This document shows, one piece after another, positions 5,670 through 28,632 of a stretch of DNA of 64,000 nucleotides. This DNA is from Arthrobacter sp. TMP15. Lineage in GTDB: Bacteria; Actinomycetota; Actinomycetes; Actinomycetales; Micrococcaceae. Under the pieces are notes generated by a model. That model had not been told where the DNA came from, did no database searches, and was given only the letters and a program-made list of their open reading frames with translations. Position 1 is the stretch's first letter. Each line of letters begins with the position of its first letter. The position numbers and the translations under genes are program-made. Location: NCBI RefSeq assembly GCF_039529835.1, contig NZ_CP154262.1, forward strand, positions 2,728,001 to 2,792,000, given 5' to 3'.

Positions 5670-5687
5670 CGGCGGAATAAGAACACA

Positions 5688-6980: not shown

Positions 6981-7023
6981 GCAGTCAAAACCGCCGTTGC
7001 ACAAGATTAGGTCGTGGAAATGA

Positions 7024-7941
7024 CTACCCTTGTTTTTGTGTGCTTTGTTGGGGGATCTGGAGTTGCAACGCTCCTAGTTTGGAAACAAGCACTTTACTCA
7101 GGACCTCATGCCCCTTTGCGTTCAGATGCACGGCATCAGCCATTTTGTTCGTGACGGCATAGCGGGTCACCCAGTCCCCGGCGCTGAGAAACAACACCCC
7201 GTTACGCTTGGCAAAGCTGGCCAACAGCGCATCGACGTGACTGCGTCGGGAGCCTGCTTCTCCCTTGGCCAACGTGCCCACGATCAAGAATTCGGACACC
7301 GGATAGCTGGACTTTAAGTCCCGCAGAAGACGCTCCGCATTGGCCAGCACCTGCGCGTCAGGAACCTTGGCCGCCGCATCGTTGCCCCCGCCTTGCACAA
7401 CGACCAGGGCCGGATTCCCATACGGGAGCACCACAGCTCCGCTCTCCACGGAATCAGGATAATTAGCTGAGGCTGATGTTTTAGCCACAAACCCAATCCC
7501 GCCGGCACCCACAAAACGGACCTTGTAGCCGGAATTCCGCAGACCTTTCTGCACCCAGGTCTCAGCCCCGGTCACGCCTGAGGCTCCGCCGGCCTGAGAA
7601 TCTCCAAAAAGTAAAGCTGTTCTGGCAATCGACGGATCTATGACTTCAGTGCGGCCCGACACCGGGTTGAAAACTGGGGAACCGGGCGGCAGGTCCCACA
7701 CCGTGATCTGCTCTTCCTTGATGATCGGTGTGGTAGCCCTGCCACCATCGTCAACGGCGTTGTGTTCGGGAAGTGCCGGAGCCTTGGCCCGCGGTGCCGC
7801 ACCTTCAACCGCTACAGCATCCAACACTGGCAACTCTGCTTGGGCTTGTCCCTGCACCGCTGAGCTTGGACTACTGAGCGCCAGCGACACGGCCAGTGTC
7901 AAAAGAAGAACCGCACCGCGTGCGAACCTGCCGTGAACCAT
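7024..7941 (-). CDS. Secreted SGNH/GDSL-type hydrolase
   Basis: 305-residue exported esterase/lipase-like protein. I place the start at 7941 (MVHGRFARGAVLLL), because AGGAAGG lies 11 nt upstream and the product begins with a classical signal peptide ending near SSPSSAVQG. The SGNH blocks are LLFGDSQAGG (nucleophile Ser), GAGGIGF, VVVQGGGNDAA (Asn) and DAVHLNAKGHEVL (Asp/His). The substrate cannot be told from sequence; acyl or acetyl esters on cell-wall or external polysaccharide are typical. It is a single gene, separated from the next minus-strand gene by 68 bp. Confidence 0.85.
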   Translation of the reverse strand: MVHGRFARGAVLLLTLAVSLALSSPSSAVQGQAQAELPVLDAVAVEGAAPRAKAPALPEHNAVDDGGRATTPIIKEEQITVWDLPPGSPVFNPVSGRTEVIDPSIARTALLFGDSQAGGASGVTGAETWVQKGLRNSGYKVRFVGAGGIGFVAKTSASANYPDSVESGAVVLPYGNPALVVVQGGGNDAAAKVPDAQVLANAERLLRDLKSSYPVSEFLIVGTLAKGEAGSRRSHVDALLASFAKRNGVLFLSAGDWVTRYAVTNKMADAVHLNAKGHEVLSKVLVSKLGALQLQIPQQSTQKQG

Positions 7942-15254: not shown

Positions 15255-15286
15255 CAACAAACTTTCTCTTGTGCCAAACATGGAAC

Positions 15287-15310
15287 GGGCCACACTTCAT
15301 TGTGTGACCC
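15287..15310 (-). promoter_or_regulatory. Dyad in the leader of the binding-protein gene
   Basis: On the plus strand GGGCCACAC, 6-nt spacer, GTGTGACCC: 9-bp arms with one G-T type mismatch. It is 33 bp upstream of the ATG at 15254. It could be an operator or an RNA hairpin in the 5' leader; nothing seen decides which. Confidence 0.4.
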
Positions 15311-15389
15311 GGCTCATATCTTTGATAGTCAACATTTACCAGACTTTGTTACGCCAGATTGCATCAAATCCAAAGTTGCAACCAGAAGG

Positions 15390-16007
15390 TTACCTAAGCG
15401 AGGCTGCACGCGGTCCGGCTTTAAAGTACGGACTGCGACCAAACCAGCCTGCGAGCCTTGCATAAGGGTCGGCTGCGACGGGGACTCGAACCTCCGGCCC
15501 AATTCCTCTCTCAACGTCTCGGTACTCTGGTTTGAGCATCCGCTGGGCCCACGCGAGCGACTGATCGGCAAGGACAGGGTCTAAAATGATGGGCACACCT
15601 GTAGCTTTCACCAGGTCCCAGGCATGGACGGTAAATTCGGATATTTGCAGGCCAATACGGCTGCGCAAGGGTGCTTCTCCGCCACCCGGCAAAGCCACTT
15701 GGGCGCTGAGGTCGGCGCTAGACCAAGCCCGCATTAGCAGTGAGGCTCCATCGCTAAAACGCGTGGACCAATCGGCGCCGAACATTGCTTCGGGGTTTGG
15801 TGGGTCAACGTTGTGCCCGCGAGCCATGATGGTGAATTTGTGCAGGTCCTGCACCACAAGGTGGTGCAGGAGATCCTGAACACTCCAATCAACGCATGGA
15901 GTAGGCCAGTCTGCCTGGTTTGAGGAGATGGCGCTGATGGTTTCGGCGCACTGATTAAGCGCACTTTCCAAAAATTGCAGCGGGTTGGGAATTGTATGCG
16001 GGGGCAT
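15390..16007 (-). CDS. DinB-like (maleylpyruvate isomerase-type, TIGR03086-like) protein
   Basis: 205-residue protein of the DinB/maleylpyruvate-isomerase N-terminal superfamily common in actinobacteria. WPTPCVDWSVQDLLHHLVVQ carries the first metal-binding His, and ISEFTVHAWDLVKATG carries the second conserved His with the HxWDL pattern. Many relatives use mycothiol or a divalent metal; the substrate here is unknown. It is 71 bp downstream of mnmA on the same strand. Confidence 0.8.
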   Translation of the reverse strand: MPPHTIPNPLQFLESALNQCAETISAISSNQADWPTPCVDWSVQDLLHHLVVQDLHKFTIMARGHNVDPPNPEAMFGADWSTRFSDGASLLMRAWSSADLSAQVALPGGGEAPLRSRIGLQISEFTVHAWDLVKATGVPIILDPVLADQSLAWAQRMLKPEYRDVERGIGPEVRVPVAADPYARLAGWFGRSPYFKAGPRAASLR

Positions 16008-16078
16008 TGTGTAAACCTTCCGTGTGGCAAGTCACCTTTTAAGGGAAGCTTACGCCAGCACCACAAGCGCCCGGAGCG

Positions 16079-17218
16079 CTACGGCAATTGCGGCCGTGCC
16101 AATGACCTCGCCGTGTCGATAGTTGCCTGCCCCAACACCCGTGTTCCCTGGTACAGCACGATCGTCTGACCCGGCGCCACACCGCGTAACGGCTCGACCA
16201 AGGTGACATCCAGGACTTGGCGGGACACGCCGTCGTCCATCACTTCAGTGACAAAAGCGCGGGCAGGCACGGGGTCGCCATGCGCACGGACCTGGGCGTA
16301 ACAATCGAATTCGGCGCCAGTGGCGACCTCGGCAATGGGCAGCCCGGCCCAAGAAACCTTGATTCCTTGGATCGCCTCAATGGCCAGCAACGCATGTGGG
16401 CCCACAATAACTTTATTTTCCTTGGGCCGGATTTCAAGCACAAAGCGAGGCTTGCCATCAGCGGCGGGGGTGCCGAGTTTAAGCCCGCGACGCTGGCCTA
16501 CGGTGAACTGGTTGGAGCCGGTGTGGCCGCCAACCTTGGCACCACTTTCATCAACAACATCACCGTCGCTCATTTCAATTTTTTCAGCCAACCATCCGGC
16601 GGTGTCCCCATCTGGAATGAAGCAAATGTCATGGCTGTCAGGCTTCTTCGCCACTGACAAACCACGGGCCTCGGCTTCGGCGCGCACCTCTGCCTTGGAG
16701 GGGGTATCGGCAAGCGGGAACATGGAGTGTTTAAGTTGCTCATGGGTCAGCACACCGAGCACATAGCTCTGGTCCTTAGCCCAATCTGCGGCGCGGTGGA
16801 GTTCCGGGCTCCCGTCGGCGTTGGTGATGACCTTGGCATAGTGGCCGGTGCAAACGGCGTCGAAGCCCAGCGCTATGGCCTTTTCCAGCAGAGCAGCGAA
16901 CTTGATCCGTTCATTGCAGCGCATGCAGGGATTGGGGGTACGCCCGGCGGTGTACTCGTCGATGAAGTCCTGAACCACATCCTCCTTGAAGCGCTCGGAG
17001 AAGTCCCAGACGTAATAGGGAATGCCCAACAGGTCGCAGGCACGCCACGCATCATTGGAGTCCTCCACAGTGCAACAACCTCGACTGCCGGTCCGCAAGG
17101 TGCCCGGCATCCGTGAGAGGGCCAGGTGGACGCCCACCACGTCATGCCCGGCATCTACGGCCCGGGCTGCGGCTACGGCGGAGTCAACCCCGCCACTCAT
17201 GGCTGCCAATACTCGCAT
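16079..17218 (-). CDS. mnmA: tRNA-specific 2-thiouridylase MnmA
   Basis: 379-residue enzyme that thiolates U34 of tRNA for Glu, Gln and Lys. The start is set at 17218 ([20 protein letters not shown]): an AAAGG lies 7 nt upstream, whereas the ATG 15 nt earlier overlaps that site. Visible motifs: the PP-loop [19 protein letters not shown] with the catalytic region, TGHYAK, and [10 protein letters not shown] with the second cysteine. The cysteine desulfurase 87 bp upstream (17306) is the expected sulfur donor. This pairing is also common in actinobacteria. Confidence 0.94.
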
Positions 17219-17305
17219 TACATACCTTTCCATTGGTGCAAAAAAATCAAATCAATTTGGTACAGCTGCCGTTGTTGGTGCAGCAGGTGTGATTACCGGT
17301 TTTAA

Positions 17306-18526
17306 TTACTGTGTGCTGGCGGTTTGGATGGAGGATTGATGCCCAGCCATCCCGGCCGTTTTTGCTCGCGCATGGGCGTCTGGCAGAGCCGCCACAAAGG
17401 CGTCAACGTCTCCCGGGCACGATGTATGCCCCAAACTAAAGCGTTGTGCCCCACGGGCCGTATTCTCATCCAAACCCATGGCCAGGAGTACGTGGGAGGG
17501 TCGAGGCACCCCGGCTGTGCAGGCCGAGCCGGTGGAGGATTCTATCCCGGCCATATCGAGTAGGAACAGTAGCGAATCTCCCTCGCAGCCGGGGAAAGTG
17601 AAATGCGCGTTTCCCGGGAGCCGCTGAGCCGGGTCATCCATCGGGTCAGGGCCGCGGAGCACCGCCTCCGGAACGGCTGCACGGACAGCGGATATGATTC
17701 GGTCGCGAAGTCCGCCAATGCGCGCGTTTTCTGTTTCCAAGTTGCTGGTGACGTCTTGGGCTGCTGCCGCGAAGGCCGCTATACCGGCCGTATCCAGCGT
17801 GCCGGAGCGAACCGAGCGTTCCTGTCCCCCGCCGTGCTGGACAGCTGTCAGTTTCACGGCACGGCCCAGCAGCAACGCGCCAACACCAACAGGGCCACCA
17901 ATTTTGTGGCCACTGATGGACATGGCGGCCAGGCCTGAGTCCTTGAAGTTCACAGCGATGGAGCCGAAAGCCTGGACGGCGTCCGAATGAACGGGGATGC
18001 CATATTTCTTTGCGAGCGCCACAATCTCGGCAATCGGCTGAACAGTGCCAACCTCATTGTTGGCCCACATGCAGGTAAGCAGCGCAACCGAGTCCGCACC
18101 GCCGCGGTCCAGCTCCTTTTCCAAGGCATCCATCAGGATCCTGCCATTGCTATCCACGGGTAGCCAGACGGCGTGAGCACCCTCATGCGCAGCTAGCCAC
18201 TCCACGGTGTCCTGGACGGCTGCATGTTCCACGCTTGAGACAAGAATACGAGTGCGCTGCGGTTCGGCGCCGTTACGTGCCCAATACAAACCCTTGACAG
18301 CAAGGTTGTCAGCCTCGGTGCCACCGGAGGTGAAGATCACCTCCGTGGGGTGGGCGCCGGCAGCCTTGGCGATGGTTTCCCGGGCGGCTTCGACGGTTGC
18401 ACGGGCGCGGCGGCCGGAGCCATGCAGTGATGACGGATTGCCGCTACGGGCAATAACGGAGGTGAGTGCGGCGAGGGCAGGGGCCGAGATAGGCGTGGTC
18501 GCCGCGTGATCAAGGTACACGGGCAC
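17306..18526 (-). CDS. Cysteine desulfurase (IscS/NifS family)
   Basis: 406-residue PLP enzyme that removes sulfur from cysteine. It uses a GTG start (MPVYLDHAATTPIS). The PLP lysine is in MSISGHKIGGPVGVGAL, and the catalytic Cys is in ESSTGSACTAGVPRPS. FTSGGTEADNLAVKG is the phosphate-binding part. The mobile catalytic loop looks intact. Co-direction with mnmA suggests a main role in tRNA thiolation; Fe-S assembly is also possible. Confidence 0.92.
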   Translation of the reverse strand: MPVYLDHAATTPISAPALAALTSVIARSGNPSSLHGSGRRARATVEAARETIAKAAGAHPTEVIFTSGGTEADNLAVKGLYWARNGAEPQRTRILVSSVEHAAVQDTVEWLAAHEGAHAVWLPVDSNGRILMDALEKELDRGGADSVALLTCMWANNEVGTVQPIAEIVALAKKYGIPVHSDAVQAFGSIAVNFKDSGLAAMSISGHKIGGPVGVGALLLGRAVKLTAVQHGGGQERSVRSGTLDTAGIAAFAAAAQDVTSNLETENARIGGLRDRIISAVRAAVPEAVLRGPDPMDDPAQRLPGNAHFTFPGCEGDSLLFLLDMAGIESSTGSACTAGVPRPSHVLLAMGLDENTARGAQRFSLGHTSCPGDVDAFVAALPDAHARAKTAGMAGHQSSIQTASTQ

Positions 18527-18614
18527 AGAGCAATTCTACGCCACGAGGCCGATACCAGTTTCCGCGGCGTTGTACCCTTACCCTTTGTTCCTCGAAGGGC
18601 AATCATGTGGACTT

Positions 18615-19258
18615 TTATTGCTGTGAACCGTTGATGGTGTCTGCTTTGAACCCCAGGCTCGTAGCGGCCCCCACCTCTAGTGCCTCCAAATCCGGTGACG
18701 TGATGATCGCCGCGATGAGCTCTGCTGTACCGCCCACCAGGGTGGAGTCAAAGTCGATCTCCGTGGCCGTGCACCAGGACCTATCCGCTGGCCAAGCCAG
18801 GTTGGCGGTTTGAAAGTTAGAGCCACCATCGCCGTCAAGCCACGTATCGAACCACGGCGGGCTGGCCAAATCACCGCTCGTGCCGTGAAACACAAAATAC
18901 TGCCGCAGTCCGTGAGCTACATTGAGCTTCCCAGCTTTGGCACAAGGAACTCCTTCGGTGACACCAGGGTCAAATCCACCCCATTGATCACCACCGATTT
19001 GTAAAGGCCGGTCCGTGCCATCGAGTGGAACTGCACCTCGGGATGAACAAGCGTTTTCTTTTCCGCAGCAACATCAGCCCACCGCAGAACCGGTGTTTGG
19101 CCCACGTTGACTCTGTGCAGGATCCGGGCATAAGCCTGGAAATGCTCGGGAAGGGTTGCCGCGACGGTGCCAATCCACTGTTCATAGCGTTCCTTGTTCA
19201 GGTACCGCTCCAAAGCGTCAGCGATCCACTGGCCGGTGCTTCCATCAACCTGTTCCAT
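18615..19258 (-). pseudogene. Conserved actinobacterial hypothetical, split by a frameshift
   Basis: Two minus-strand frames appear to be one gene. The first (19258-18917, 113 aa) begins MEQVDGSTGQWIADALERYL and stops shortly after VNGVDLTLVSPKE. The second frame is open across the same stretch and continues TEGVPCAKAGKLNVAHGLRQ to the C-terminal block with WPADRSWCTATEIDFDSTLV, ending at 18615. That block is, from memory, the hallmark C-terminus of a conserved actinobacterial family of about 210-260 aa. The frame change lies around 18915-18990, most simply near 18957. It could be a genuine inactivating indel, with or without loss of internal residues, or a sequencing error. Function unknown. 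Confidence 0.6.
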
Positions 19259-19343
19259 GGGCTCACCCTACAGGCGCCCGTGGACTCAACTAACCCTGGC
19301 GATTCCATGGTTCCAGAGCGCATCCATTACCTCTGTGGTGGGC

Positions 19344-19373
19344 GCCGCACTCTAAGCCGCCGCACTCTAAGCC
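19344..19373. repeat. Perfect 15-bp tandem duplication over a stop codon
   Basis: GCCGCACTCTAAGCC occurs twice in a row. The second copy contains the stop codon of the regulator gene on the minus strand (TAG at 19367-19369), so the duplication extends just past its 3' end. Confidence 0.9.
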
Positions 19374-20158
19374 CTGGGAACGAGCCGGGCACAGCAGTGA
19401 GAGATTTCTGCATCTGGCGCCAGGTCGTGACAGGTGTCCGCGCATCCCTCTAGAGCGCCGCTGAGCAGCGAGCCGTTGAGTGAGCAGACAACGTTGGTAT
19501 GAGCTTTGGACAGGCTATGAAACGGGCAGTTGGCCATGATGGTGCCGCCGGCACCGTCGGGCTCGGGGCTGTATCCCGTGGCGGCCAGTAATTGATGGAT
19601 ATTGCCGGATTCAGCCCCTAAACGGCGACCCTCCTCGAAGGCAACTTCTACCAGGGCTGCAGCAATACCGATCCCTGTATCAATGCAGTGCTGGACAGCT
19701 GCAGCAAGCACGCCTGCGGCAAGATCATAGTGCCGCGGCGGAACGGAGGCGCTAACCTCGTTCTGCGCCACTGTGTACAGCTTGGTGGGCCGTCCCGAAC
19801 CTGGCCCGGTCTTAGCGCCCACTTTGCGAAACTCTACGAGTAGCAAGTGCTCATCCACCAACCGGTCAAGGTGCGCACGGATGGTGCTCTTGGGTAGTTC
19901 CAGCTGCTCCGCGCAGTCATCGCGGCTAAGAGCTTCTCCGGAATCGCGCACCAGCTCAAACACTGTTCTGCGAATAGGGTCCCCCAGTGATGCCACGGCT
20001 TGCAGGCGCTGCGCGTCGTCAAGCTTGGCCCTTGTGGTGTTGGCGCTTGTGGTGTTGGCGCCAAGATGCTTGGCTGTGTGGAGAGTGGAGGGGGTTTGCT
20101 CCGCGTTGTTCATGACCGCTGGCCTTGTGCTCTCTTGCCAGTGCATGCTCCGCTGCAT
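19367..20158 (-). CDS. HTH regulator with C-terminal Cys cluster (COG2345-like)
   Basis: 263-residue regulator. A winged-helix region at about residues 50-110 (RLQAVASLGDPIRRTVFELV, then AEQLELPKSTIRAHLDRLVD) precedes a sensory domain. The C-terminus is Cys/His-rich: MANCPFHSLSKAHTNVVCSL, GCADTCHDL, SHCCARLV. This resembles SufR/COG2345-type regulators whose cysteines can hold an Fe-S cluster or metal. It is divergent from the folE operon and probably controls it through the dyad at 20206-20234. The start is uncertain (20158 or 20113); a -10-like AATACT lies close to 20158, so a nearly leaderless message is possible. An exact 15-bp duplication lies in its N-terminal linker. Confidence 0.8.
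   Translation of the reverse strand: MQRSMHWQESTRPAVMNNAEQTPSTLHTAKHLGANTTSANTTRAKLDDAQRLQAVASLGDPIRRTVFELVRDSGEALSRDDCAEQLELPKSTIRAHLDRLVDEHLLLVEFRKVGAKTGPGSGRPTKLYTVAQNEVSASVPPRHYDLAAGVLAAAVQHCIDTGIGIAAALVEVAFEEGRRLGAESGNIHQLLAATGYSPEPDGAGGTIMANCPFHSLSKAHTNVVCSLNGSLLSGALEGCADTCHDLAPDAEISHCCARLVPRA
20031..20060. repeat. Perfect 15-bp tandem duplication in regulator gene
   Basis: CTTGTGGTGTTGGCG occurs twice in tandem. It is in frame and gives ANTTSANTTR in the linker before the HTH domain. Confidence 0.9.
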
Positions 20159-20185
20159 GGCAGGTTAAGTATTGTTTGGACTTAC

Positions 20186-20234
20186 TTGACGCTTTGAGTC
20201 TGCGCTTCTAAAGTCAATAATACAAGCTTTAGAA
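20186..20234 (+). promoter_or_regulatory. folE operon promoter with overlapping operator-like dyad
   Basis: Candidate -35 TTGACG (20186-20191), 17-bp spacer, -10 TAAAGT (20209-20214). A perfect 8-bp inverted repeat, TTCTAAAG-N13-CTTTAGAA (20206-20234), covers the -10 and start-site region and ends just before the ribosome-binding site (AAAGG) of the ATG at 20245. This placement fits repression by the divergently encoded HTH regulator. Direct binding is inferred. Confidence 0.65.
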
Positions 20235-20244
20235 AGGTTTGGAA

Positions 20245-20853
20245 ATGTCCATCTCCAGTGCTTCCCTCCCAGATCTGCTCACTTACGACGATGCCGAGTC
20301 GTTGGTGGGCCCATCTTCCATTGATCTGCCGCGTGCTCAGGCCGCCATTGCCGAATTCCTGCGGGCACTGGGCCGTGATGAAACCGATCCTCACCTCTTG
20401 GACACTCCCCGCCGGGTGGCAGCCGCCTACGCAGAAATGCTGACCCCTCGCGAAACAACATGGACCACATTTCCCAATGACGACGGATACCAAGGTCTAG
20501 TGCTGGTGAAGGACATTCCCTTCCATTCATTGTGCCAGCACCACTTGCTGCCGTTCCGGGGTGTGGCTCATGTGGGCTACCTGCCAGGGGATCGTCTTTT
20601 TGGCCTGTCCAAGATGGCCCGCGGTGTTGAGCTCTTCTCCCGGGATCTGCAGGTCCAAGAACGACTCACCCAGCAGGTGGCAGACTGGCTCGAGGACACC
20701 TTGGCGCCCCGCGGAGTAGGCGTAGTCATGGAGGCGGAGCACATGTGCATGTCGTTGCGCGGGGTGCAAACCTCCGGCACCACCACCCGCACATCGGTTT
20801 TCACTGGTTTGTTATCCCAGGGCGGGCCATTGCGCGGGCAGTTCCCGCAGTAA
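20245..20853 (+). CDS. folE: GTP cyclohydrolase I
   Basis: 202-residue enzyme making 7,8-dihydroneopterin triphosphate from GTP. Zinc and substrate motifs are present: FHSLCQHHLLPFRGVAHVGY (Cys and His ligands), LSKMARGVELFSRDLQVQER, and MEAEHMCMSLRGVQTSGT with the second Cys. I use the ATG at 20245, with AAAGG 7 nt upstream, rather than the TTG at 20239. It opens a four-gene operon that does not look like the classical ftsH-folE-folP-folB-folK set, so it may be a second folE. A missing or present canonical copy elsewhere would decide this. Confidence 0.93.
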   Translation: MSISSASLPDLLTYDDAESLVGPSSIDLPRAQAAIAEFLRALGRDETDPHLLDTPRRVAAAYAEMLTPRETTWTTFPNDDGYQGLVLVKDIPFHSLCQHHLLPFRGVAHVGYLPGDRLFGLSKMARGVELFSRDLQVQERLTQQVADWLEDTLAPRGVGVVMEAEHMCMSLRGVQTSGTTTRTSVFTGLLSQGGPLRGQFPQ

Positions 20854-20955
20854 TGCTTTTCTGGCCACTGGCAGATGCGGGGCTGGTTTAAGAGCATTAG
20901 TTTTCACCAAGTTTTATCTAAGAGACATAAATTTCCACCGGAAAGAGTTTCGATC

Positions 20956-22236
20956 ATGACCACCTCACCCAGCACCTCATCCCCCACCGATTCAGCCACC
21001 GATTCCCCCACCCCGAATGCGGGTATGGTGATCATCGGCGGTGGCCTCACAGCGGCCACCGCTGCGGAAACGCTGCGGAAAGAAGGCTATGCCGGTGCTG
21101 TGACAATCGTGGCGGACGAACCGGAAACCCCCTACCAGCGTCCGCCGCTTTCCAAGGGTTTCCTGGCCGGCAAAGAGGACGCTGACTCGTTGCTGCCGCT
21201 TCCCGCCAGCTGGTATCCCGAACACAATGTCACGCTTCTGAAAGGAACTGCAGCAACTGCACTGGATCCCCAGGCGCACACCGTCACCCTCGCCGATGGA
21301 ACTACGCTTGCCTATGACAAAGTGCTTCTGGCAACAGGGGCCGCACCGCGTCATATCCCCTTCCCTGGCGTTGACCTCAAGGGTGTTTACACGTTCAGAA
21401 CCAAGGCAGACAGCGTTGCCGTGAAAGAGCTGTTCACTGCCGGAAACAAGAATGTAGTAATGATTGGCTCAGGCTGGATTGGCATGGAAATTGCCGCCAC
21501 AGCAACAGAACTCGGCAACCATGTGGCATTGCTTGGTCTGGAAGATGTTCCACTATCAACTGCCATTGGCTCCACGTTGGGTGCTGTCTTCACCAACAGG
21601 CAAAAGGAAGCCGGCGTCCGCTTTGAACTGCCTGCCACCGCGGAGAAAATTCAAGGCAGTGACGGTGCCGTGACCTCAGTTCTGACCAACACAGGTGTGA
21701 CGCTGCCAGCTGACATTGTCATTGTGGCTGTGGGCGTGGTCCCCAACACAGGGTTGGCCAAGGACGCCGGATTAACAATCAATAACGGGATCGAGGTCAC
21801 AGCCAGCCTGCAAACTTCCGCAGCGGATGTATTTGCCGCAGGCGATGTGGCCAACTCCCTGCACCCGGTCACCGGAGCCTACGCCCGCTCCGAGCACTGG
21901 GCCAACGCCATTGCCAGTGGCAAAGTTGCGGCAAAATCAATGCTGGGTCAGAACGCCGTCCTTGACGACATCCCCTACTTCTATACTGATCAGTTTGATT
22001 TGGGCATGGAGTATTCCGGCTTTGGAGCCCTGACCAAGGATGCCGAACTCGTCATCCGCGGGAGCTTGGAAAAGCGCGAGTTTGTTGCTTTCTGGCTACT
22101 TGAAGGCCGCGTTGTTGCCGGCATGAACGTAAACGTTTGGGATGTCCAGGATGCCATCAAGGACCTCATCATCTCAGCGCGCACGGTGAACAAAGTCCAG
22201 CTGGCTGATGAACACACTGCTATTGAGGACATTTGA
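20956..22236 (+). CDS. FAD/NAD(P)-dependent ferredoxin-reductase-like flavoprotein
   Basis: 426-residue flavoprotein of the BphA4/putidaredoxin-reductase class. FAD-binding Rossmann motif at residues 24-45 (GMVIIGGGLTAATAAETLRK), PYQRPPLSKGFLAG loop, NAD(P) motif VVMIGSGWIGMEIAATATEL, and DVFAAGDVAN near residue 290. The C-terminal reductase domain (YFYTDQFDLGMEYSGFG) is present. Such enzymes pass electrons from NAD(P)H to ferredoxins or small proteins. I start at 20956, preceded by GGAAAGAG. It overlaps the next gene by one base (TGATG). No ferredoxin gene is next to it, so the partner is unknown. Confidence 0.9.
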   Translation: MTTSPSTSSPTDSATDSPTPNAGMVIIGGGLTAATAAETLRKEGYAGAVTIVADEPETPYQRPPLSKGFLAGKEDADSLLPLPASWYPEHNVTLLKGTAATALDPQAHTVTLADGTTLAYDKVLLATGAAPRHIPFPGVDLKGVYTFRTKADSVAVKELFTAGNKNVVMIGSGWIGMEIAATATELGNHVALLGLEDVPLSTAIGSTLGAVFTNRQKEAGVRFELPATAEKIQGSDGAVTSVLTNTGVTLPADIVIVAVGVVPNTGLAKDAGLTINNGIEVTASLQTSAADVFAAGDVANSLHPVTGAYARSEHWANAIASGKVAAKSMLGQNAVLDDIPYFYTDQFDLGMEYSGFGALTKDAELVIRGSLEKREFVAFWLLEGRVVAGMNVNVWDVQDAIKDLIISARTVNKVQLADEHTAIEDI

Positions 22237-23207
22237 TGGCAACTACGAGGACCTCCGCAACGCCGGAAGCCCCCGCAACAGCAGCGCCGTTTTATACCCC
22301 GGAGCTCTTGCATCCCATCCATCAATTTGGACCACGCACCATCGATTTCAGTCGGCAGGTGGCCCTGATGGCCATCATCAACCGCACCCCTGATTCCTTC
22401 TACGACGGCGGGACCACGTTTGCGTTGGATGCCGCGGTTAACGCTTCGCTTGCGGCGGTGCGAGACGGAGCCGATTGGGTTGATATTGGCGGCGTTCCCT
22501 TTGCTCCCGGGCCTGCTTTGAGTGCTGAGGAAGAAAGTGAGCGAGTGGTTCCGGTGATTGCTGCCGTGGCGGCGGCAAGTGATGTGATCATTTCAGTTGA
22601 CACGTTTTTGCCTGAAGTGGCTGCCCGCAGTATTGCGGCAGGCGCCAACGTCATTAACGACACCACCGGTCTCTCCAACCCGGAGCTGGCATCGGTGGTG
22701 GCAGAATCTGGCGCACATTTAGTCATCACCCATTCACTGGCCAAGCCGCGTACCGTGTACCCGCGGCCGTACTACAACGACGTTGTTAGTGAGGTTGCGG
22801 CGTTCTTAGCCGAGCGGGTTGAGCTTGCCCTTTCGTTGGGTGTCCCTGCCGAGAAGATCATCATTGACCCCGGCCATGACCTCAATAAGAACACCCTGCA
22901 CACCCTTGAGATTACGCGCCGCTTCAACGAAATCGCCGCTTTAGGATTTCCGGCTCTGGCCGCCGTGTCCAACAAAGATTTCATCGGCGAAAGTCTCAAC
23001 CAAGCAAAGACGGAGCGCCTTGAAGGCTCCTTGGCTGCTGGCGTCATTTGCATTTTAGGTGGCGCAAGGATTCTACGAATGCACAATGTTGCTGCGGCCA
23101 GCTCAGCCATCGGCATGACCGAAACAATTTTGGGTTGGCGGGAACCGGCGTATCTTCTGCACAATATGGGCGAGGCCAATCAGCCGGCCCGCCCGATCGC
23201 CCAGTAG
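22236..23207 (+). CDS. FolP2-type dihydropteroate synthase-like protein
   Basis: 323-residue TIM-barrel pterin-binding protein. Canonical blocks are modified: MAIINRTPDSFYDGG instead of NVTPDSFSDGG; DIGGVPFAPGPALSAEE where true DHPS has DIGGxSTRPGA; INDTTGLSNPE; IIDPGHDLNKNTLHTLEITR; NKDFIGESLN. These follow the M. tuberculosis FolP2 (Rv1207) pattern as I remember it, a protein reported to lack DHPS activity. The Ser-Thr-Arg-Pro loop that helps bind pABA is missing, so folate synthesis or sulfonamide sensitivity should not be assumed. It lies between a flavoprotein and an Rv2671-like reductase in the folE operon. Confidence 0.85.
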   Translation: MATTRTSATPEAPATAAPFYTPELLHPIHQFGPRTIDFSRQVALMAIINRTPDSFYDGGTTFALDAAVNASLAAVRDGADWVDIGGVPFAPGPALSAEEESERVVPVIAAVAAASDVIISVDTFLPEVAARSIAAGANVINDTTGLSNPELASVVAESGAHLVITHSLAKPRTVYPRPYYNDVVSEVAAFLAERVELALSLGVPAEKIIIDPGHDLNKNTLHTLEITRRFNEIAALGFPALAAVSNKDFIGESLNQAKTERLEGSLAAGVICILGGARILRMHNVAAASSAIGMTETILGWREPAYLLHNMGEANQPARPIAQ

Positions 23208-23260
23208 CCAAGTAGCCAAATAGCCAAATAGCCAAATAGCCAAATAGCAAAGTAGCCAAG
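23205..23260. repeat. 8-bp tandem repeat (TAGCCAAA-type), 7 units
   Basis: Seven 8-bp units starting with the FolP2-like stop codon: TAGCCAAG, four TAGCCAAA, TAGCAAAG, TAGCCAAG. Because 8 is not a multiple of 3, a TAG occurs in each frame. The array ends 6 nt before the AAGGAG of the next gene (ATG 23278). Length variation would alter spacing between the two genes only. Confidence 0.92.
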
Positions 23261-23277
23261 TCACTAAGGAGATTTTC

Positions 23278-24096
23278 ATGATTGAGCGGATCTTCCCCAC
23301 CCCCTCGATTCTCTCCGGAGCAGATCTGGAGCAGGAACTGCTCGCGCCACCTCCGGAAGGACGCCTGCGTGGCAAACCATGGGTGAGCTTTAACTTTATT
23401 GCCAGTATTGATGGTGCCGCTTCCATGGATGGCGTCTCAGGGAAACTGGGAAATGCGTGGGACCAACGTATTTTTTCATTGTTACGGCAAACCGCGGATG
23501 TTATTTTGGTGGGTGCTCAAACCATCAGGGTAGAAGGTTATGGCGGTCAATTGCTGAGCGAGTCGGCACAAAAGTGGCGTGCGGAGAACTGGCTCTCGGA
23601 GCACCCACCCTTGGCGATTGTTTCTGGTTCTCTAAATTTGAATCCCGGTCTTGAAGTGTTCACCAGGGCACCCGTTCGCCCGTTGGTTTTGACACTTGAG
23701 TCTGCCCCGCAAGAAAGCAAAAGCGCCCTGTCCAAGGTGGCCGATCTGGTCATGGTGGGCAAGGATACCCTCGAGGTGGAACTGATCATTTCTGCACTTG
23801 CCGAGCGAGGATTTAAAAAGATCCACTCCGAGGGCGGACCGACTCTGCTCAATACCTTCGCTAAAGCCGGAAAAGTGGATGAGCTTTCCTTGACTGTCTC
23901 TCCGCTCCTGGTGGGCGGGTCAGCCGGGCGAATCGCGCACGGGGCCGACCGGGATTCTGATACTAGCGGCGAAGGCGGTGTGCCTAAAAGTCAACCCGTG
24001 GCAAGCGCTGATATGACGTTGACAAGGGTTCTCAAAGCTGACTCAATGCTGTTCCTGCGCTACGTAAGCCACAACTCGCAGCCCCCGGCTTCTTAG
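23278..24096 (+). CDS. RibD C-terminal/DHFR-family reductase (Rv2671-like)
   Basis: 272-residue reductase of the pyrimidine-reductase (RibD_C/DHFR-like) fold. SFNFIASIDGAASMDGVSG is the N-terminal block, DVILVGAQTIRVEGYGG follows, and KKIHSEGGPTLLNTFAKA binds NADPH phosphate. This arrangement resembles M. tuberculosis Rv2671, reported from memory to reduce dihydrofolate as well as having RibD ancestry. There is no deaminase domain and no rib neighbour, so a pterin or folate-like substrate from the same operon is more likely than riboflavin precursor. AAGGAG lies 6 nt before the ATG. Confidence 0.85.
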   Translation: MIERIFPTPSILSGADLEQELLAPPPEGRLRGKPWVSFNFIASIDGAASMDGVSGKLGNAWDQRIFSLLRQTADVILVGAQTIRVEGYGGQLLSESAQKWRAENWLSEHPPLAIVSGSLNLNPGLEVFTRAPVRPLVLTLESAPQESKSALSKVADLVMVGKDTLEVELIISALAERGFKKIHSEGGPTLLNTFAKAGKVDELSLTVSPLLVGGSAGRIAHGADRDSDTSGEGGVPKSQPVASADMTLTRVLKADSMLFLRYVSHNSQPPAS

Positions 24097-24150
24097 CATC
24101 AAGCTGCGGCGAACCAGCTTTAGCCGCCAGTGAACTCCCCGGCGCGCCGG

Positions 24151-24882
24151 CTAGTTCGACGGCGGGGCAACCGACAATTTTGCCATCACCTTGGGTGTGG
24201 TGGCTGCCAACAATTCATCTGTTGGACAGGCCAAGCTCACCAACAAAGAGGTATCAGCACTTCCCAGCATGCGCCCCCATACAGTGCTTGCCATAACATC
24301 TTTGCCAGCTTTGGTGCCGAAGGACAAGAAGGAAATCAGCGGTCCTGCTTTTCCTGCCTCGGCCACCCAGGGCAGCAGCGCCTCCGGCAAGGATTCTTCC
24401 ATCACCGATGGAATGAGGTATTTCATTAACTCAAGTGTGGAGGATTTGTCATCACCGTGAGTGATCAGAGGGCCCTGGTTGGTAGCGATCCAATACGCTA
24501 CTTGGCAGCCCGCAGCGTTGGTATATTGGGTCTGGCCGGCCACGTTGTTCTTCACCAGATTCCACTCAGGCGGCCCCGGTGTCTGCGAATACTCCTGGGG
24601 TGGCTGGCCCAGCACGTCACTAAAACCAACCGGCACGCCGGGGACAAGCGTTTTGCCTGCTTCGAAAGTCATTGGCGCGCCAGCCACAGCGGCAGCGTCA
24701 TGCCCGGGAACAATAGTTGGCGGAGCGTAGCTGGTAGGTGCAGCTGAGGGTGCAATGCTGGGAGGAGACTGGGACGGAACCGAAATACTGCACCCGGTCA
24801 GCGCCGCAATCATCAGAAAGACTACTCCTGTAGCCGCAAGCGTTTGCTTCTTCGGCCCCTTTGGTTGATCCACAGGATCCAC
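24151..24882 (-). CDS. Predicted lipoprotein of unknown function
   Basis: 243-residue protein with a lipoprotein signal (TGVVFLMIAALTGC; Cys about residue 31), a Pro/Ser-rich linker, and a globular domain with conserved-looking cysteines in NAAGCQVAYW and SLACPTDE. I do not recognise the domain. A GTG at 24882 gives the longest product; the exact start is unclear because no good ribosome-binding site is visible. A palindrome (CCGGCGCGCCGG, 24139-24150) follows the stop. It is divergent from the J-domain gene. Confidence 0.7.
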   Translation of the reverse strand: MDPVDQPKGPKKQTLAATGVVFLMIAALTGCSISVPSQSPPSIAPSAAPTSYAPPTIVPGHDAAAVAGAPMTFEAGKTLVPGVPVGFSDVLGQPPQEYSQTPGPPEWNLVKNNVAGQTQYTNAAGCQVAYWIATNQGPLITHGDDKSSTLELMKYLIPSVMEESLPEALLPWVAEAGKAGPLISFLSFGTKAGKDVMASTVWGRMLGSADTSLLVSLACPTDELLAATTPKVMAKLSVAPPSN

Positions 24883-25044
24883 TGTACAGATCCCGCCCCA
24901 TCCTCAGCCACATCTCAAGTCACCGCCGCCCCAGAGCAGAGACACCAGAGCAGCGGCCCGGGGAGACAGCACCATGGAGGGGAACAAAGCGCTTCTGCGG
25001 CTAGACTGAACTCTTGGCAAAACAGGGCTAGCGAAAGGCCACCC

Positions 25045-26073
25045 GTGGGCGAGACGTTCCTTACGCACTATCAAGTTCTCGGTCTTGCACGTTCTGCCAC
25101 GGAGCAAGAGATCAAGATCGCGTACCGCAAAGCAGCCAAGACTGCCCACCCCGACAGGGGCGGTGCCCCTGAACTCTTTCATAAAATTGCAGAAGCCTAC
25201 GAGGTCCTCTCTGACCCTGTCCGCAGACAGGCGTATGACAGGTCCTACGGTTCACCAAGCCGCCCGGGTACTTCGGCAGGTGCCAGCACGCGAACCGGCT
25301 CATACGGCGCTCCAGGAACGGAGGGCTCTTCCGTGCGTGAAGGAACTGCTGCCGGTGCGGCTAACAGTTTTGGGGCTTTCAATACCCGCCGCGCCCCTGA
25401 AACACGACGCACGGCCGGTGACCCTGCCGTTTATATCCCCGCCTACGAGGAGCCCTCAAGCGGTTCAGTAGAGAATTCAGCACAGCAGCAAACTCCGCTG
25501 ATGCCACGGATGACTGCGGCGCAACCTGTCCACGGTGCACCGCGAAAACGTGGCGTCTTTGGTGCGGCGTCGCGACTGGCCCGGGAAGCGCGGACTGCCC
25601 AGCTCATAATGCAGCAGGTCCTGCCGGGCATCCCGGCCGCAAGGCTCATCAACGGTCTCAGTGCTCCCATGGGCAGTGGCTATCTGGATCATGTTTTGGT
25701 TTCGGGGTACCGAATCGCGATCATTGGTTCAATGCTGGTGCCCGACGGCGCCTTCCGCTGGGACGGGAGCATGCTGGTCCATGGCGGCAAGGTTGCAGCA
25801 CCGCCACAACTGATCCCCGCCACACGCAAGATGCAAGAACTCTTCCCCGAATGCAATGTCACAGCCTGGGTCTGTGTGCACAGCAAGACGGGAAACCTGT
25901 TCGAACCGGTTATTGATTACGCCAAGGGCACTGACCCAGATGGTTCAAACACGCTCAATGTGGCTAACGCTGCCCGTTTTGTGCGTGAGGTCAAGCATTT
26001 CTTAGCCTCAGGGCCTTCTCCCAACGTGGTTGATTTACACGTTCTGGACAGGCTCCTGGGCGGCATGTACTAG
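25045..26073 (+). CDS. J-domain protein with C-terminal NERD-like region
   Basis: 342-residue protein. Start at the GTG 25045 (AAAGG 6 nt upstream); the longer upstream frame lacks support. The J domain (residues 1-65) has the HPD motif in KTAHPDRGGAPELF and ends near AYEVLSDPVRRQAYD. After a Gly/Ser/Arg-rich linker, the C-terminal half (SGYLDHVLVSGYRIAIIGSM) resembles the IDHVVV.. core of NERD nuclease-related domains. The usual ExK catalytic residues are replaced by Gly-Ser-Met, so any nuclease role is doubtful. It has no zinc-finger region and is not DnaJ itself. It probably recruits DnaK. Confidence 0.82.
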   Translation: MGETFLTHYQVLGLARSATEQEIKIAYRKAAKTAHPDRGGAPELFHKIAEAYEVLSDPVRRQAYDRSYGSPSRPGTSAGASTRTGSYGAPGTEGSSVREGTAAGAANSFGAFNTRRAPETRRTAGDPAVYIPAYEEPSSGSVENSAQQQTPLMPRMTAAQPVHGAPRKRGVFGAASRLAREARTAQLIMQQVLPGIPAARLINGLSAPMGSGYLDHVLVSGYRIAIIGSMLVPDGAFRWDGSMLVHGGKVAAPPQLIPATRKMQELFPECNVTAWVCVHSKTGNLFEPVIDYAKGTDPDGSNTLNVANAARFVREVKHFLASGPSPNVVDLHVLDRLLGGMY

Positions 26074-26178
26074 AGCAGGCATCCTGAGCCCGCCTCTGCG
26101 CAACGGGCCAAAATTCAAATGAGCCCCCTCGCGTCCTTCTGGTTACAACCGGCTAGTGCCTGGCGGTAGGATAAAACA

Positions 26179-26646
26179 GTGTTTCGCATCCTTTTCCTGA
26201 CCCCTGAGATCCCTGGCAACACCGGAAATGCCATCCGGTTGGCCGCCATCACTGGTGCCGAGCTGCACCTTGTCGAACCCTTGGGCTTTGACTTCTCTGA
26301 CGCTAAATTGCGAAGAGCCGGACTTGATTATCACGATCTTGCGGTGATGAGAGTTCACCCCAGTCTCGAAGCGGCGTGGGCCGCGCTGGCTCCCGAACGG
26401 GTCTTTGCGTTCACTGCCGATGGCGAGAGAAGCTACACAGAGATTGCCTACCAGCCCGGAGATGTGCTGATGTTTGGCCGCGAATCCGAGGGGCTGCCAG
26501 CTGAAGTGAAACAGGATCCGCACGTCACCGCCAGAGTACGGCTGCCCATGCTTCCCTCATTACGTTCCCTGAACCTGGCCAATGCAGCCTCGATCGCAGT
26601 TTTTGAGGCGTGGCGCCAAAACAACTTCGCCGGCGCACAGCGCTAA
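26179..26646 (+). CDS. trmL: tRNA (cytidine/uridine-34-2'-O)-methyltransferase TrmL
   Basis: 155-residue SPOUT enzyme, full length for the family. IPGNTGNAIRLAAITGAELH and LVEPLGFDFSD form the first block; VLMFGRESEGLP and SLNLANAASIAVFEAWRQN form the SAM-binding knot. It methylates the wobble ribose of tRNA-Leu. GTG start at 26179. A weak hairpin (GGCCCG / CGGGCC, 26663-26687) lies after the stop. Confidence 0.92.
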   Translation: MFRILFLTPEIPGNTGNAIRLAAITGAELHLVEPLGFDFSDAKLRRAGLDYHDLAVMRVHPSLEAAWAALAPERVFAFTADGERSYTEIAYQPGDVLMFGRESEGLPAEVKQDPHVTARVRLPMLPSLRSLNLANAASIAVFEAWRQNNFAGAQR

Positions 26647-26733
26647 GCCGAAATTTGTTGGCGGCCCGCAACTATAGCTTTCGGGCCATAACTCAAGGCT
26701 CATTAGAATTTATTTCATCAATTGGAGGCATGC

Positions 26734-27537
26734 ATGTCCGCTCGCGATCCTGGCTTGGCGTTCACCGACGGTGCACTGCAATTTGAGGCGTGGTCAGAGA
26801 AACTCTGGGATCCGATGGGCCGGGGCGTGGTTACTGAAGCCATGTTGCAGCCGGGTGAGAAAGTTTTGGATGCTTGCTGCGGCACAGGTGCGGCCACCAT
26901 TCCTGCCGCGTTGGCCGTGGGCCCCGAAGGTAGTGTGGACGGCGTTGACCTTTCCACCGGTCTGCTGCGCATTGCCGCTGCCAACCTGGCCGAGAATGGC
27001 ATCCTGAACACAACCTTGACGGAAGCAGACGTCACAGCATGGCGCGGACACCGCACCTTTGACGCTGTCCTGTGCTCCTACAGCATGTTCTTCTTTGCCG
27101 ACATGGAGGCAGGAGTGGAGCATTTGGCTTCAATGTTGCGTCCCGGCGGGCGCCTCGTGACAAGCACGTGGATTGAGGGCGCCTTGGAACCGTTCGCCAC
27201 ACGCATCTTTGAAGCTGCCATCAAGGAACGTCCACGCCTGGCCAACGTGGTTCCACTGGCAAACCAAAACATGGCACGCGTGGCCACCGTGGAATCACTA
27301 ACCACGTGGCTTGGAGCGCGCGGCTTCGAAGACGTGTCAGTATCCACACATCCCCTCACACTGACAGTTGATGACGCCATGGCCTGGAACCTTGTCATGG
27401 GCAGCGGCTGGCGGACTTTCCTGCCCCGGGATCCTGAGGCAATCGCCAGGGTTCGCCGCGAGTTCATCCAATCAGTGGGCCCGCGCATTGAAATGAACTC
27501 CGACGCCATGATCGCCACGGCATCGGTCCCCCGCTAA
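26734..27537 (+). CDS. Class I SAM-dependent methyltransferase
   Basis: 267-residue methyltransferase. ATG at 26734 follows GGAGG by 6 nt (the open frame extends 12 nt further through a TTG). The SAM motif I is EKVLDACCGTGAATIPAALA; the acidic motif is SVDGVDLSTGLLRIA; FDAVLCSYSMFFFAD is motif IV. Related to UbiE/Methyltransf_11 enzymes; substrate unknown. It is a single plus-strand gene ending at a strong hairpin and facing etfA. Confidence 0.85.
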   Translation: MSARDPGLAFTDGALQFEAWSEKLWDPMGRGVVTEAMLQPGEKVLDACCGTGAATIPAALAVGPEGSVDGVDLSTGLLRIAAANLAENGILNTTLTEADVTAWRGHRTFDAVLCSYSMFFFADMEAGVEHLASMLRPGGRLVTSTWIEGALEPFATRIFEAAIKERPRLANVVPLANQNMARVATVESLTTWLGARGFEDVSVSTHPLTLTVDDAMAWNLVMGSGWRTFLPRDPEAIARVRREFIQSVGPRIEMNSDAMIATASVPR

Positions 27538-27575
27538 GAAATCTTGGACACACAAGAAATTTTGGGCACATAAGA

Positions 27576-27617
27576 AACTGCCGTGGTCAAACGTTTTAGC
27601 GTCTGACCACGGCAGTT
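27576..27617. terminator. Bidirectional hairpin between convergent genes
   Basis: Perfect 14-bp arms AACTGCCGTGGTCA / TGACCACGGCAGTT, loop 14 nt with a further ACG/CGT pairing. It lies 39 nt after the methyltransferase stop and 47 nt beyond the etfA stop. No U-tract is obvious on either strand. Confidence 0.78.
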
Positions 27618-27663
27618 GTGGTGTTGGCTAGTTAACCTAGCTACACACTGCGCACTTCACCGG

Positions 27664-28632
27664 TTATGCCCTGCGCTTTTTAATCTCTGCAACGGCTTGC
27701 GGCAGGACCTGGAACAAATCGCCCACAATGCCGAAATCCGCAATCTCAAAAATCGGAGATTCCGAGTCCTTGTTAACAGCCACGATGAGCTTGGACGTCT
27801 GCATTCCGGCCTTTTGCTGGATGGCCCCTGAAATTCCAACAGAAATGTACAGCGCAGGAGCAACCTTCTTGCCTGTCTGACCCACCTGGGAGGCGTGCGA
27901 GATCCAGCCTGCATCAGTAGCTGCACGTGAGGCACCCACAGCAGCTCCAAGGACATCCGCCAGCTCTTCAATGGGGGTGAAGTCACCATCAACGCCGCGG
28001 CCCCCAGCCACAATAATGCGGGCATCTTCAAGTTCGGGCCGTCCCGAAGCCGGTCGCGGTGTCCGTGCTGTCACTCGGGCACTCAGACTCGCCGGGGCAA
28101 AAGCCACGTTTACCACCTCAACGGCGGGCACGCTCGCCTCTGGGGCCGGGTTCGCTTCAACCGCGTGCGCCTTAACAGTGAAGACACCGAGCGCTGAAGT
28201 AGCCCGCGCCTGCACACTATAGGACCCGGCAAGGACAGACTTGTGCGCAACGAAGGCTTCGCCGTCGTACATCAGGGACACGGCGTCGGTAATGACACCG
28301 GCGTTCAGTGTGACACCGGTGCGGGCGGCGATTTCCTTTCCGGCAGCACTGTTATCAAGGAGTACGGCGCTGGCGCTGACAGCAGCGGCGGCCTGCGCCA
28401 CAAGATCTGCTTTGGGGGCAACCAGGAACTCGCCCAGCTCGGCTTGCTCCGAGTGCAGCACCCGCTGTACTCCATAGGCGCCCAGCTCCGCCAACACCTC
28501 GGCTCCAACCGGACCGGCCACAACAGCCACTGGTTCACCGGCGCCACGAGCCAAGGTCAGAAGCTGCGCGACAGTGTTTGAAAGCTTGCCCGGGACATCG
28601 AGCTGATCAATGTAAACAACAATTGCAGTCAT
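27664..28632 (-). CDS. etfA: Electron transfer flavoprotein alpha subunit (copy 1)
   Basis: 322-residue FAD-binding subunit of ETF. The FAD domain is diagnostic: [60 protein letters not shown]. It forms a heterodimer with the EtfB encoded 10 nt upstream and carries electrons from acyl-CoA dehydrogenases to the respiratory chain. A second pair is at 48520-50280, and no acyl-CoA dehydrogenase is adjacent to this copy. Confidence 0.94.

What the first reader, a model, noticed from the sequence alone, without database searches (positions are those of the whole stretch)
20186..24096. Second-folate-like operon: FolE + flavoprotein + FolP2-type protein + Rv2671-like reductase
FolE, a ferredoxin-reductase-like flavoprotein, a DHPS-like protein with the STRPG loop replaced (DIGGVPFAPG), and a RibD/DHFR-fold reductase lie in one operon, with overlapping or tightly spaced genes. 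The DHPS-like protein follows the FolP2 pattern, whose role is unknown and which I recall as inactive in DHPS assays. Rv2671-like reductases can reduce dihydrofolate. Together they could make a modified pterin or folate-like cofactor, or a reductase-coupled pterin repair route, separate from canonical folate synthesis.
Basis: partly seen in the sequence, partly recalled or inferred. Interest (0 to 1): 0.72.

Follow-up and report, generated by a model that had tools for sequence, protein, structure and literature searches.

The report
Second, altered folate-like gene operon
Beside a complete normal folate pathway, this Arthrobacter-like bacterium carries a second set of folate-type genes whose core, a DHPS relative with a rebuilt binding pocket and a DHFR-like reductase, stays together across related bacteria and probably makes an unknown pterin compound.

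Summary
The operon is real: folE-like 20245-20853, FAD oxidoreductase 20956-22236, DHPS-like (FolP2) 22236-23207, Rv2671-like reductase 23278-24096, with a divergent Cys-rich HTH regulator at 19367-20158. The genome also holds ftsH-folE-folP-folB-folK and thyA-folA, so this is a second set.

The conserved core is folP2 plus the Rv2671-like gene. In 148 family genomes, 77 have FolP2, and all 77 have the reductase gene just downstream. The pair occurs at several unrelated loci, in another family and in another class. FolE is beside it in 11 of 77 and the flavoprotein in 21 of 77. The flavoprotein and regulator also persist without folP2, so the four-gene picture is only partly conserved.

FolP2 keeps ten aligned FolP residues, among them the recalled pterin-site ones (140 of 140 non-redundant rows), but lacks the pABA loop (Thr62 in 0, Arg63 in 1 of 140), with Asp at two nearby positions.

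Best reading, inferred: FolP2 joins dihydropterin diphosphate to a nucleophile other than pABA, and the reductase finishes the product. Substrate and product are unknown. No held open-licence paper contains both names, FolP2 and Rv2671.

The parts
19367..20158 (-). divergent HTH (ArsR/HTH_20-like) regulator with Cys-rich C-terminus, C-x13-C-x13-C-x15-CC; SufR-like iron-sulfur sensor by resemblance (recalled)
   Evidence: HTH_20 26.0 bits, cut-off 27; HTH_5 22.1 bits, cut-off 22; five Cys columns kept in 23, 23, 22, 23, 23 of 23 rows
20159..20244 (.). intergenic region with weak sigma-70-like matches, presumably the divergent promoter region
   Evidence: 3 promoter-like matches in 19200-24600; shuffles mean 1.9, sd 1.2, so not above chance
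20245..20853 (+). second GTP cyclohydrolase I (FolE paralogue); ORF tool starts it at TTG 20239, ATG 20245 is likelier
   Evidence: clade apart from canonical FolE, 100/100; zinc-ligand motif CxHH in 23 of 24 rows
20956..22236 (+). FAD/NAD(P) oxidoreductase of the ferredoxin-reductase (BphA4/putidaredoxin reductase) type; start could also be ATG 21025
   Evidence: best PDB 3lxd, 231.7 bits
22236..23207 (+). FolP2-type DHPS homologue with STRPG loop replaced by VPFAPG
   Evidence: (best PDB 2vp8, 202.4 bits)
23205..23259 (.). 8-bp tandem repeat (TAGCCAAA, 6.9 copies) in the folP2-reductase spacer
   Evidence: spacer 24 bases shorter in near-identical strain L145
23278..24096 (+). RibD_C-fold (DHFR-like fold) reductase, Rv2671-like
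   Evidence: (profile A2 best PDB 4xrb = Rv2671, 240.2 bits)

Best explanation
FolP2 and the Rv2671-like reductase are most likely consecutive enzymes of a second, folate-like pathway. FolP2 would take 6-hydroxymethyl-7,8-dihydropterin diphosphate (from the shared FolB/FolK) and join it to a nucleophile other than pABA. The reductase would then reduce the dihydropterin ring with NADPH to give a tetrahydropterin conjugate. In Arthrobacter and a few relatives a dedicated FolE adds its own GTP-to-dihydroneopterin step, and the FAD oxidoreductase supplies redox maintenance or serves the enzyme that uses the product, under a Cys-rich, probably iron-sulfur regulator. Shown by sequence: the pairing, the kept pterin-site residues, the lost pABA loop, the complete canonical pathway elsewhere. 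Inferred: substrate, product, reaction order, the roles of FolE, the flavoprotein and the regulator.
For: Canonical folE/folP/folB/folK and thyA-folA are elsewhere in the genome; a canonical DHFR match is in 148 of 148 family genomes, so the reductase is not filling a DHFR gap. FolP2-type in 77 of 148; the Rv2671-like gene is on the same strand, with matches 5-252 bp apart, in 76 of 76 fetched loci plus the window, at mnmA/iscS in 64, a trmL/DnaJ-side site in 2 and other sites in 11. The pair appears in named Microbacteriaceae (L215, L219, L221, L222), in unnamed family f4 of the same order (L236-L239) and in another class (L231, L232). The same four rows, three in this family and one in f4, form one clade in both protein trees, consistent with transfer as a unit. 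In 140 non-redundant FolP2 rows E. coli N22, D56, D96, N115, D185, K192, S219, K221, R255, H257 are kept in 140; T62 in 0, R63 in 1 (Lys in 2), R220 in 4; 189 is Asp in 140 and 222 Asp in 139 (Glu in 1); FolP1 rows keep E60-R63 and R220 in 21 of 21. PMC1971073 (passages read): M. leprae folP2 does not complement an E. coli folP mutant. PMC12855090 (passages): rv2671 encodes a DHFR.
Against: No product, substrate or activity is known. In other actinobacterial families FolP2 can sit away from the Rv2671-like gene: none was found within 13-14.5 kb in 8 loci that I picked (L233-L235, L240-L244). The flavoprotein and regulator occur without folP2, and 8 of 71 FolP2-negative genomes have the reductase alone. 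Deleting folP2 raises sulfamethoxazole sensitivity in M. tuberculosis H37Ra (PMC7809127, abstract) and, as that paper reports, in M. smegmatis, which links it to ordinary folate metabolism. The co-occurrence counts are not corrected for shared descent.
Confidence: 0.45

Rival explanations
1. Backup folate set: FolP2 is a poor or drug-insensitive DHPS and the Rv2671-like protein a spare DHFR, kept for antifolate or pABA-analogue stress.
For: Gene set FolE-FolP-DHFR mirrors folate synthesis; folP2 loss raises sulfamethoxazole sensitivity (PMC7809127, abstract and passages); Rv2671 called a DHFR (PMC12855090, passages); the DHPS equivalog model scores FolP2 above its cut-off.
Against: pABA loop lost across the family (T62 0 of 140, R63 1 of 140); M. 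leprae folP2 fails to complement (PMC1971073, passages); canonical DHFR match in 148 of 148 genomes.
Confidence: 0.2
2. Pterin repair or salvage: FolP2 binds or hydrolyses dihydropterin diphosphate or damaged folates, and the reductase and flavoprotein restore the reduced state; no new conjugate is made.
For: Two reductases in one operon; new conserved polar residues H188/D189/N220/D222 could place water; possible redox-sensing regulator.
Against: The ten aligned residues listed, Lys221 among them, are kept as in a condensing enzyme; a dedicated FolE fits synthesis better than repair (inference).
Confidence: 0.17
3. Two unrelated units that happen to abut: a folP2-reductase pair, and a regulator-flavoprotein (-folE) unit that belongs to the iscS/mnmA iron-sulfur neighbourhood.
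For: Flavoprotein beside mnmA or iscS in 7 of 8 FolP2-negative loci that I chose for their high flavoprotein scores, regulator matched in 5 of the 8; folE-flavoprotein with regulator apart from folP2 in L225 and L226.
Against: Flavoprotein-folP2-reductase order also where no mnmA/iscS gene was seen among the neighbours: L043, L067, L109, L187, L222, L238, L236, L239; all 14 genomes with this FolE also have FolP2; flavoprotein stop overlaps folP2 start.
Confidence: 0.18

Closest known systems
M. tuberculosis FolP2 / Rv1207 (PDB 2vp8)
   Same: best solved-structure match (202.4 bits; E. coli-type DHPS 5u0v/1aj0 183.7; mycobacterial DHPS I 1eye 110.3); pABA loop replaced
   Different: window clade has GGVPFAPG where 2vp8 has GGVKAGPG; in 2 of 8 non-paired FolP2 loci examined (L235, L243) a family-2 glycosyltransferase gene, GpgS-like by recall, is the neighbour instead of the reductase
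M. tuberculosis Rv2671 (PDB 4xrb), DHFR-analogue of RibD_C fold
   Same: best solved-structure match of the profile, 240.2 bits, next 122.8
   Different: here it is in an operon with folP2; below the NCBIfam equivalog cut-offs (173.4 of 184, 170.6 of 226, 167.7 of 274)
Canonical folate operon ftsH-folE-folP-folB-folK
   Same: contains FolE and FolP homologues; present elsewhere in this genome
   Different: no folB or folK here; both shared members fall in separate clades from the canonical ones
BphA4/putidaredoxin-reductase type FAD reductases
   Same: Pyr_redox_2 + Reductase_C domains, 3lxd and 1d7y matches
   Different: none of the four operon genes is a ferredoxin or oxygenase
SufR-type iron-sulfur repressors (recalled)
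   Same: N-terminal HTH and four spaced C-terminal cysteines
   Different: no NCBIfam or PDB match supports the name; cluster binding untested

Membership tests
FolP2 (Rv1207-type) | Pterin_bind domain | tested here: met
   PF00809 215.3 bits
FolP2 (Rv1207-type) | closer to Rv1207 than to canonical DHPS | tested here: met
   202.4 bits against 183.7 (E. coli-type) and 110.3 (1eye), a modest margin over E. coli; FolP2 and FolP1 rows split 100/99, but Rv1207 itself was not in that tree
FolP2 (Rv1207-type) | STRPG loop absent | tested here: met
FolP2 (Rv1207-type) | lack of DHPS activity | not testable with these tools
   literature only (PMC1971073, passages)
canonical DHPS | pABA-binding loop Thr62-Arg63 | tested here: not met
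   T62 0 and R63 1 of 140 rows
canonical DHPS | NCBIfam DHPS equivalog TIGR01496 above cut-off | tested here: met
   249.7 against 162.6; judged an over-call because the loop is missing. The other DHPS equivalog, NF008625, is not reached (203.5 of 455)
canonical DHPS | clustering with folB/folK | tested here: not met
   the other copy has them
Rv2671-type reductase | RibD_C fold and Rv2671 as nearest solved relative | tested here: met
Rv2671-type reductase | NCBIfam pyrimidine reductase equivalog cut-off | tested here: not met
   173.4 of 184 at best
Rv2671-type reductase | reduces dihydrofolate | not testable with these tools
   no assay
GTP cyclohydrolase I | domain and zinc-ligand motifs | tested here: met
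   NF006826 197.5 against 162 and NF006825 186.9 against 174, but TIGR00063 172 of 181.6 and NF006824 122.2 of 202 not reached; CxHH in 23 of 24 rows (L037 has CQRH) and HxCM seen in the 24 printed rows (whose tally of the second motif used a wrong pattern and reads 0)
SufR-like iron-sulfur regulator | HTH plus spaced C-terminal cysteines | tested here: met
   motif name recalled
SufR-like iron-sulfur regulator | binds a [4Fe-4S] cluster | not testable with these tools
   none

The most novel reading that the evidence does not exclude
Many Actinomycetota make an unrecognised folate analogue: FolP2 joins the pterin to a non-benzoate, perhaps cationic, amine, and the Rv2671-type enzyme is its dedicated reductase rather than a spare DHFR. 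In Arthrobacter the pathway has its own FolE, flavoprotein and redox- or iron-responsive control.
Probability: 0.33. Interest if true: 0.85.

Novelty: new variant of a known kind. Interest (0 to 1): 0.6.

Why it matters
FolP2 and Rv2671 are two long-known proteins of unsettled physiological role. A gene pairing kept in every FolP2-bearing genome sampled in one family, and recurring in another class, gives a concrete, testable hypothesis: they act in one pathway. It would point to a folate-like compound not yet described, explain why FolP2 looks catalytically intact yet fails as a DHPS, and warn that automatic annotation (TIGR01496) calls it dihydropteroate synthase.

Tried and rejected
Sole folate operon: rejected, canonical genes are elsewhere. 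Reductase replaces a missing DHFR: rejected for this family, 148 of 148 genomes have a canonical DHFR match. Link of FolP2 to a GpgS-like gene as in mycobacteria (recalled): a match above 240 bits to the glycosyltransferase of L235 occurs in only 3 of 148 genomes, 2 of them FolP2+, so 75 of 77 FolP2 genomes do without it. Riboswitch or known RNA: none at E up to 1 in 14000-28000. Recent duplication of canonical folE or folP: rejected by trees. Plasmid carriage: the two records with FolP2 matches (E up to 1e-40) in the plasmid collection are 11.9 Mb and 2.7 Mb long; reductase matches (E up to 1e-20) are in six records, four of them Streptomyces plasmids of 33-407 kb, none of which is among the FolP2 records. 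So the reductase type can travel alone, and there is no support for the pair on ordinary plasmids. Promoter scan: not above chance. Structure model: could not be made.

The second-FolE count uses the listed rows; weaker extra matches in G096, G056 and G133 were not shown; L045 (G056) holds only a folE fragment and is not counted. Loci outside the family and the FolP2-negative loci were picked by me, so their ratios are not frequencies. The window genes at 16079-17233, 17306-18526, 24844-26073 and 26179-26646 are tRNA_Me_trans, Aminotran_5, DnaJ and SpoU_methylase by Pfam; the names MnmA, IscS and TrmL are my reading, and gatCAB in L231 is recalled. The roles of the E. coli FolP residues are recalled; their conservation was computed. 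The FolE tree's bootstrap had not settled and three operon rows (L222, L227, L187) have long branches.
Full report
What is there. The operon at 20245-24096 (+) holds a FolE paralogue, a ferredoxin-reductase-type FAD oxidoreductase, a DHPS homologue and a RibD_C-fold reductase. The flavoprotein stop and folP2 ATG overlap (TGATG), and 70 bases, mostly an 8-bp tandem repeat, separate folP2 from the reductase. A divergent HTH regulator at 19367-20158 carries C-x13-C-x13-C-x15-CC, kept in 22 or 23 of 23 rows at each of five cysteines. The window's folP2 is 99% identical to that of Arthrobacter sp. H35-MC1 (L145).

It is a second set. The genome (3.7 Mb, 99.98% complete) has ftsH-folE-folP-folB-folK at C1:3464130-3467864 (HPPK, FolB and Peptidase_M41 by Pfam) and thyA-folA. 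In trees the operon FolE (24 rows) and the canonical FolE (21 rows) each lie on one side of a branch with support 100/100 (8 duplicate rows of the 53 hits left out; bootstrap not settled). FolP2 (37 chosen rows) and FolP1 (22 rows, one of them E. coli) split at 100/99. These are old paralogues, not recent copies.

The pair. In 148 genomes of the family, 77 have a FolP2-type match (351 bits or more; the next match scores 150). I fetched all 76 other loci (4 further loci with the reductase but no folP2 were also fetched). The Rv2671-like gene lies downstream on the same strand, matches 5-252 bp apart, in 76 of 76, plus the window. In three of them (G035, G058, G087) the genome-search match is split or partial and below 100 bits, so at that cut-off 74 of 77 would count. 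Among the 71 FolP2-negative genomes 8 have a match of 125 bits or more; the next such match is 42 bits. Fisher p is 2e-33 without correction for descent. The pair is at an mnmA/iscS locus in 64, a trmL/DnaJ-side site in 2 and other places in 11. In the named set 79 of 80 could be scored and all 79 have it. Outside the family, the listed places lie side by side in G462, G414, G371 and G489 (same order) and in G233 and G255 (another class), confirmed in L231, L232 and L236-L239. Eight other FolP2 loci that I picked (L233-L235, L240-L244) have no Rv2671-like match in 13-14.5 kb. The rows from G104, G001, G118 and G462 (three in this family, one in f4) form one clade both for FolP2 (100/100) and for the reductase (98/95), as expected if the pair moves as a unit.

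The looser parts. The flavoprotein is next to folP2 in 21 of 77, folE in 11, and the regulator lies in the stretch in 13. A second FolE of this type (190 bits or more) is listed for 14 of 148 genomes, all FolP2+; in 3 it lies apart from folP2. Full regulator-folE-flavoprotein-folP2-reductase order also occurs in a Microbacteriaceae MAG (L222), with a weakly DoxX-like gene inserted (21.3 bits, cut-off 23.6). Against a tight four-gene unit, eight FolP2-negative loci, chosen for high flavoprotein scores, keep the flavoprotein, seven of them beside mnmA or iscS, and five match the regulator.

The active site. Aligned with E. coli FolP (L266), 201 FolP2 rows (155 distinct, 140 below 95% identity) keep N22, D56, D96, N115, D185, K192, S219, K221, R255 and H257 in 140 of 140. 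T62 is kept in 0, R63 in 1 (Lys in 2) and R220 in 4 (N in 135); position 189 is Asp in 140, 222 is Asp in 139 and Glu in 1, 188 is His in 138. The 21 FolP1 rows keep E60, S61, T62, R63 and R220 in 21; seven of their local alignments stop before R255. That D96, N115, D185, K221 and R255 bind the pterin and that the TRPG loop meets pABA is recalled knowledge. Rows were collected by similarity to FolP2, so degenerate members may be missed. I infer an enzyme that still handles dihydropterin diphosphate but whose second pocket changed from basic to acidic, which argues against a benzoate.

Mechanism. GTP to dihydroneopterin triphosphate (either FolE), then the shared FolB and FolK, then FolP2 with an unknown nucleophile, then reduction by the Rv2671-like enzyme. 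The FolE, FolB and FolK steps rest on homology; the nucleophile, product and order are inference. A canonical DHFR match is in 148 of 148 genomes, so the reductase is not a replacement.

Literature. [quoted passage not shown] leprae folP2 does not complement an E. coli folP mutant. PMC7809127 (abstract and passages) reports that folP2 deletion raises sulfamethoxazole susceptibility, and calls folP2 a DHPS gene. PMC12855090 (passages) and PMC10530724 (passages) treat Rv2671 as able to reduce dihydrofolate. The primary papers on Rv1207 (2008) and Rv2671 (2016) were not held and are known to me only from reference lists and recall. No held paper contains both names, FolP2 and Rv2671 (0 papers); the listings of searches (10 of 49,837 shown) gave no title or abstract about the pairing, and most of those papers were not opened. 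This covers open-licence papers only, and other gene names could hide a mention.

Verdict. The firm point, new as far as these searches go, is the folP2-reductase pairing together with the consistently rebuilt pocket.

Noticed in passing
window 23205-23259: TAGCCAAA repeated 6.9 times in the folP2-reductase spacer; the near-identical strain L145 has a spacer 24 bases (three units) shorter, so the repeat number varies.
   Followed up: partly
window 18615-19258: Two short ORFs on the - strand match two parts of one 284-aa protein of L064 in different frames: a disrupted neighbour gene or a sequencing fault.
   Followed up: partly
L227 (G136) 4679-7471: The second folE stands next to a 669-aa chorismate-binding (anthranilate/aminodeoxychorismate synthase-like) gene, away from folP2.
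   Followed up: partly
L231 4712-8824: In another actinobacterial class a FolP2-type gene (GGVKAAAG loop) and a RibD_C gene overlap by 4 bases, between an IlvD-like and a class V aminotransferase gene; L232 has the pair too.
   Followed up: partly
L150, L174, L176: Records titled Sporosarcina, Acidobacteria MAG and Vibrio cholerae strain 35D carry Micrococcaceae-like folP2 loci (71-87% identical): probably mislabelled or contaminated.
   Followed up: no
L268 3964-4407 and L222 5406-5867: A weakly DoxX-like gene (22.1 and 21.3 bits, cut-off 23.6) lies next to the Cys-rich regulator in both, without and with folP2 nearby.
   Followed up: partly
L112 (G057): Keeps the Rv2671-like gene at the mnmA/iscS locus without folP2, leaving a gap of 1093 bases.
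   Followed up: no
L037 (G052) folE: The zinc-ligand motif of this operon FolE reads CQRH instead of CxHH.
   Followed up: no
window 22236-23207: NCBIfam equivalog TIGR01496 calls this protein dihydropteroate synthase (249.7 against cut-off 162.6) although the pABA loop is missing.
   Followed up: yes
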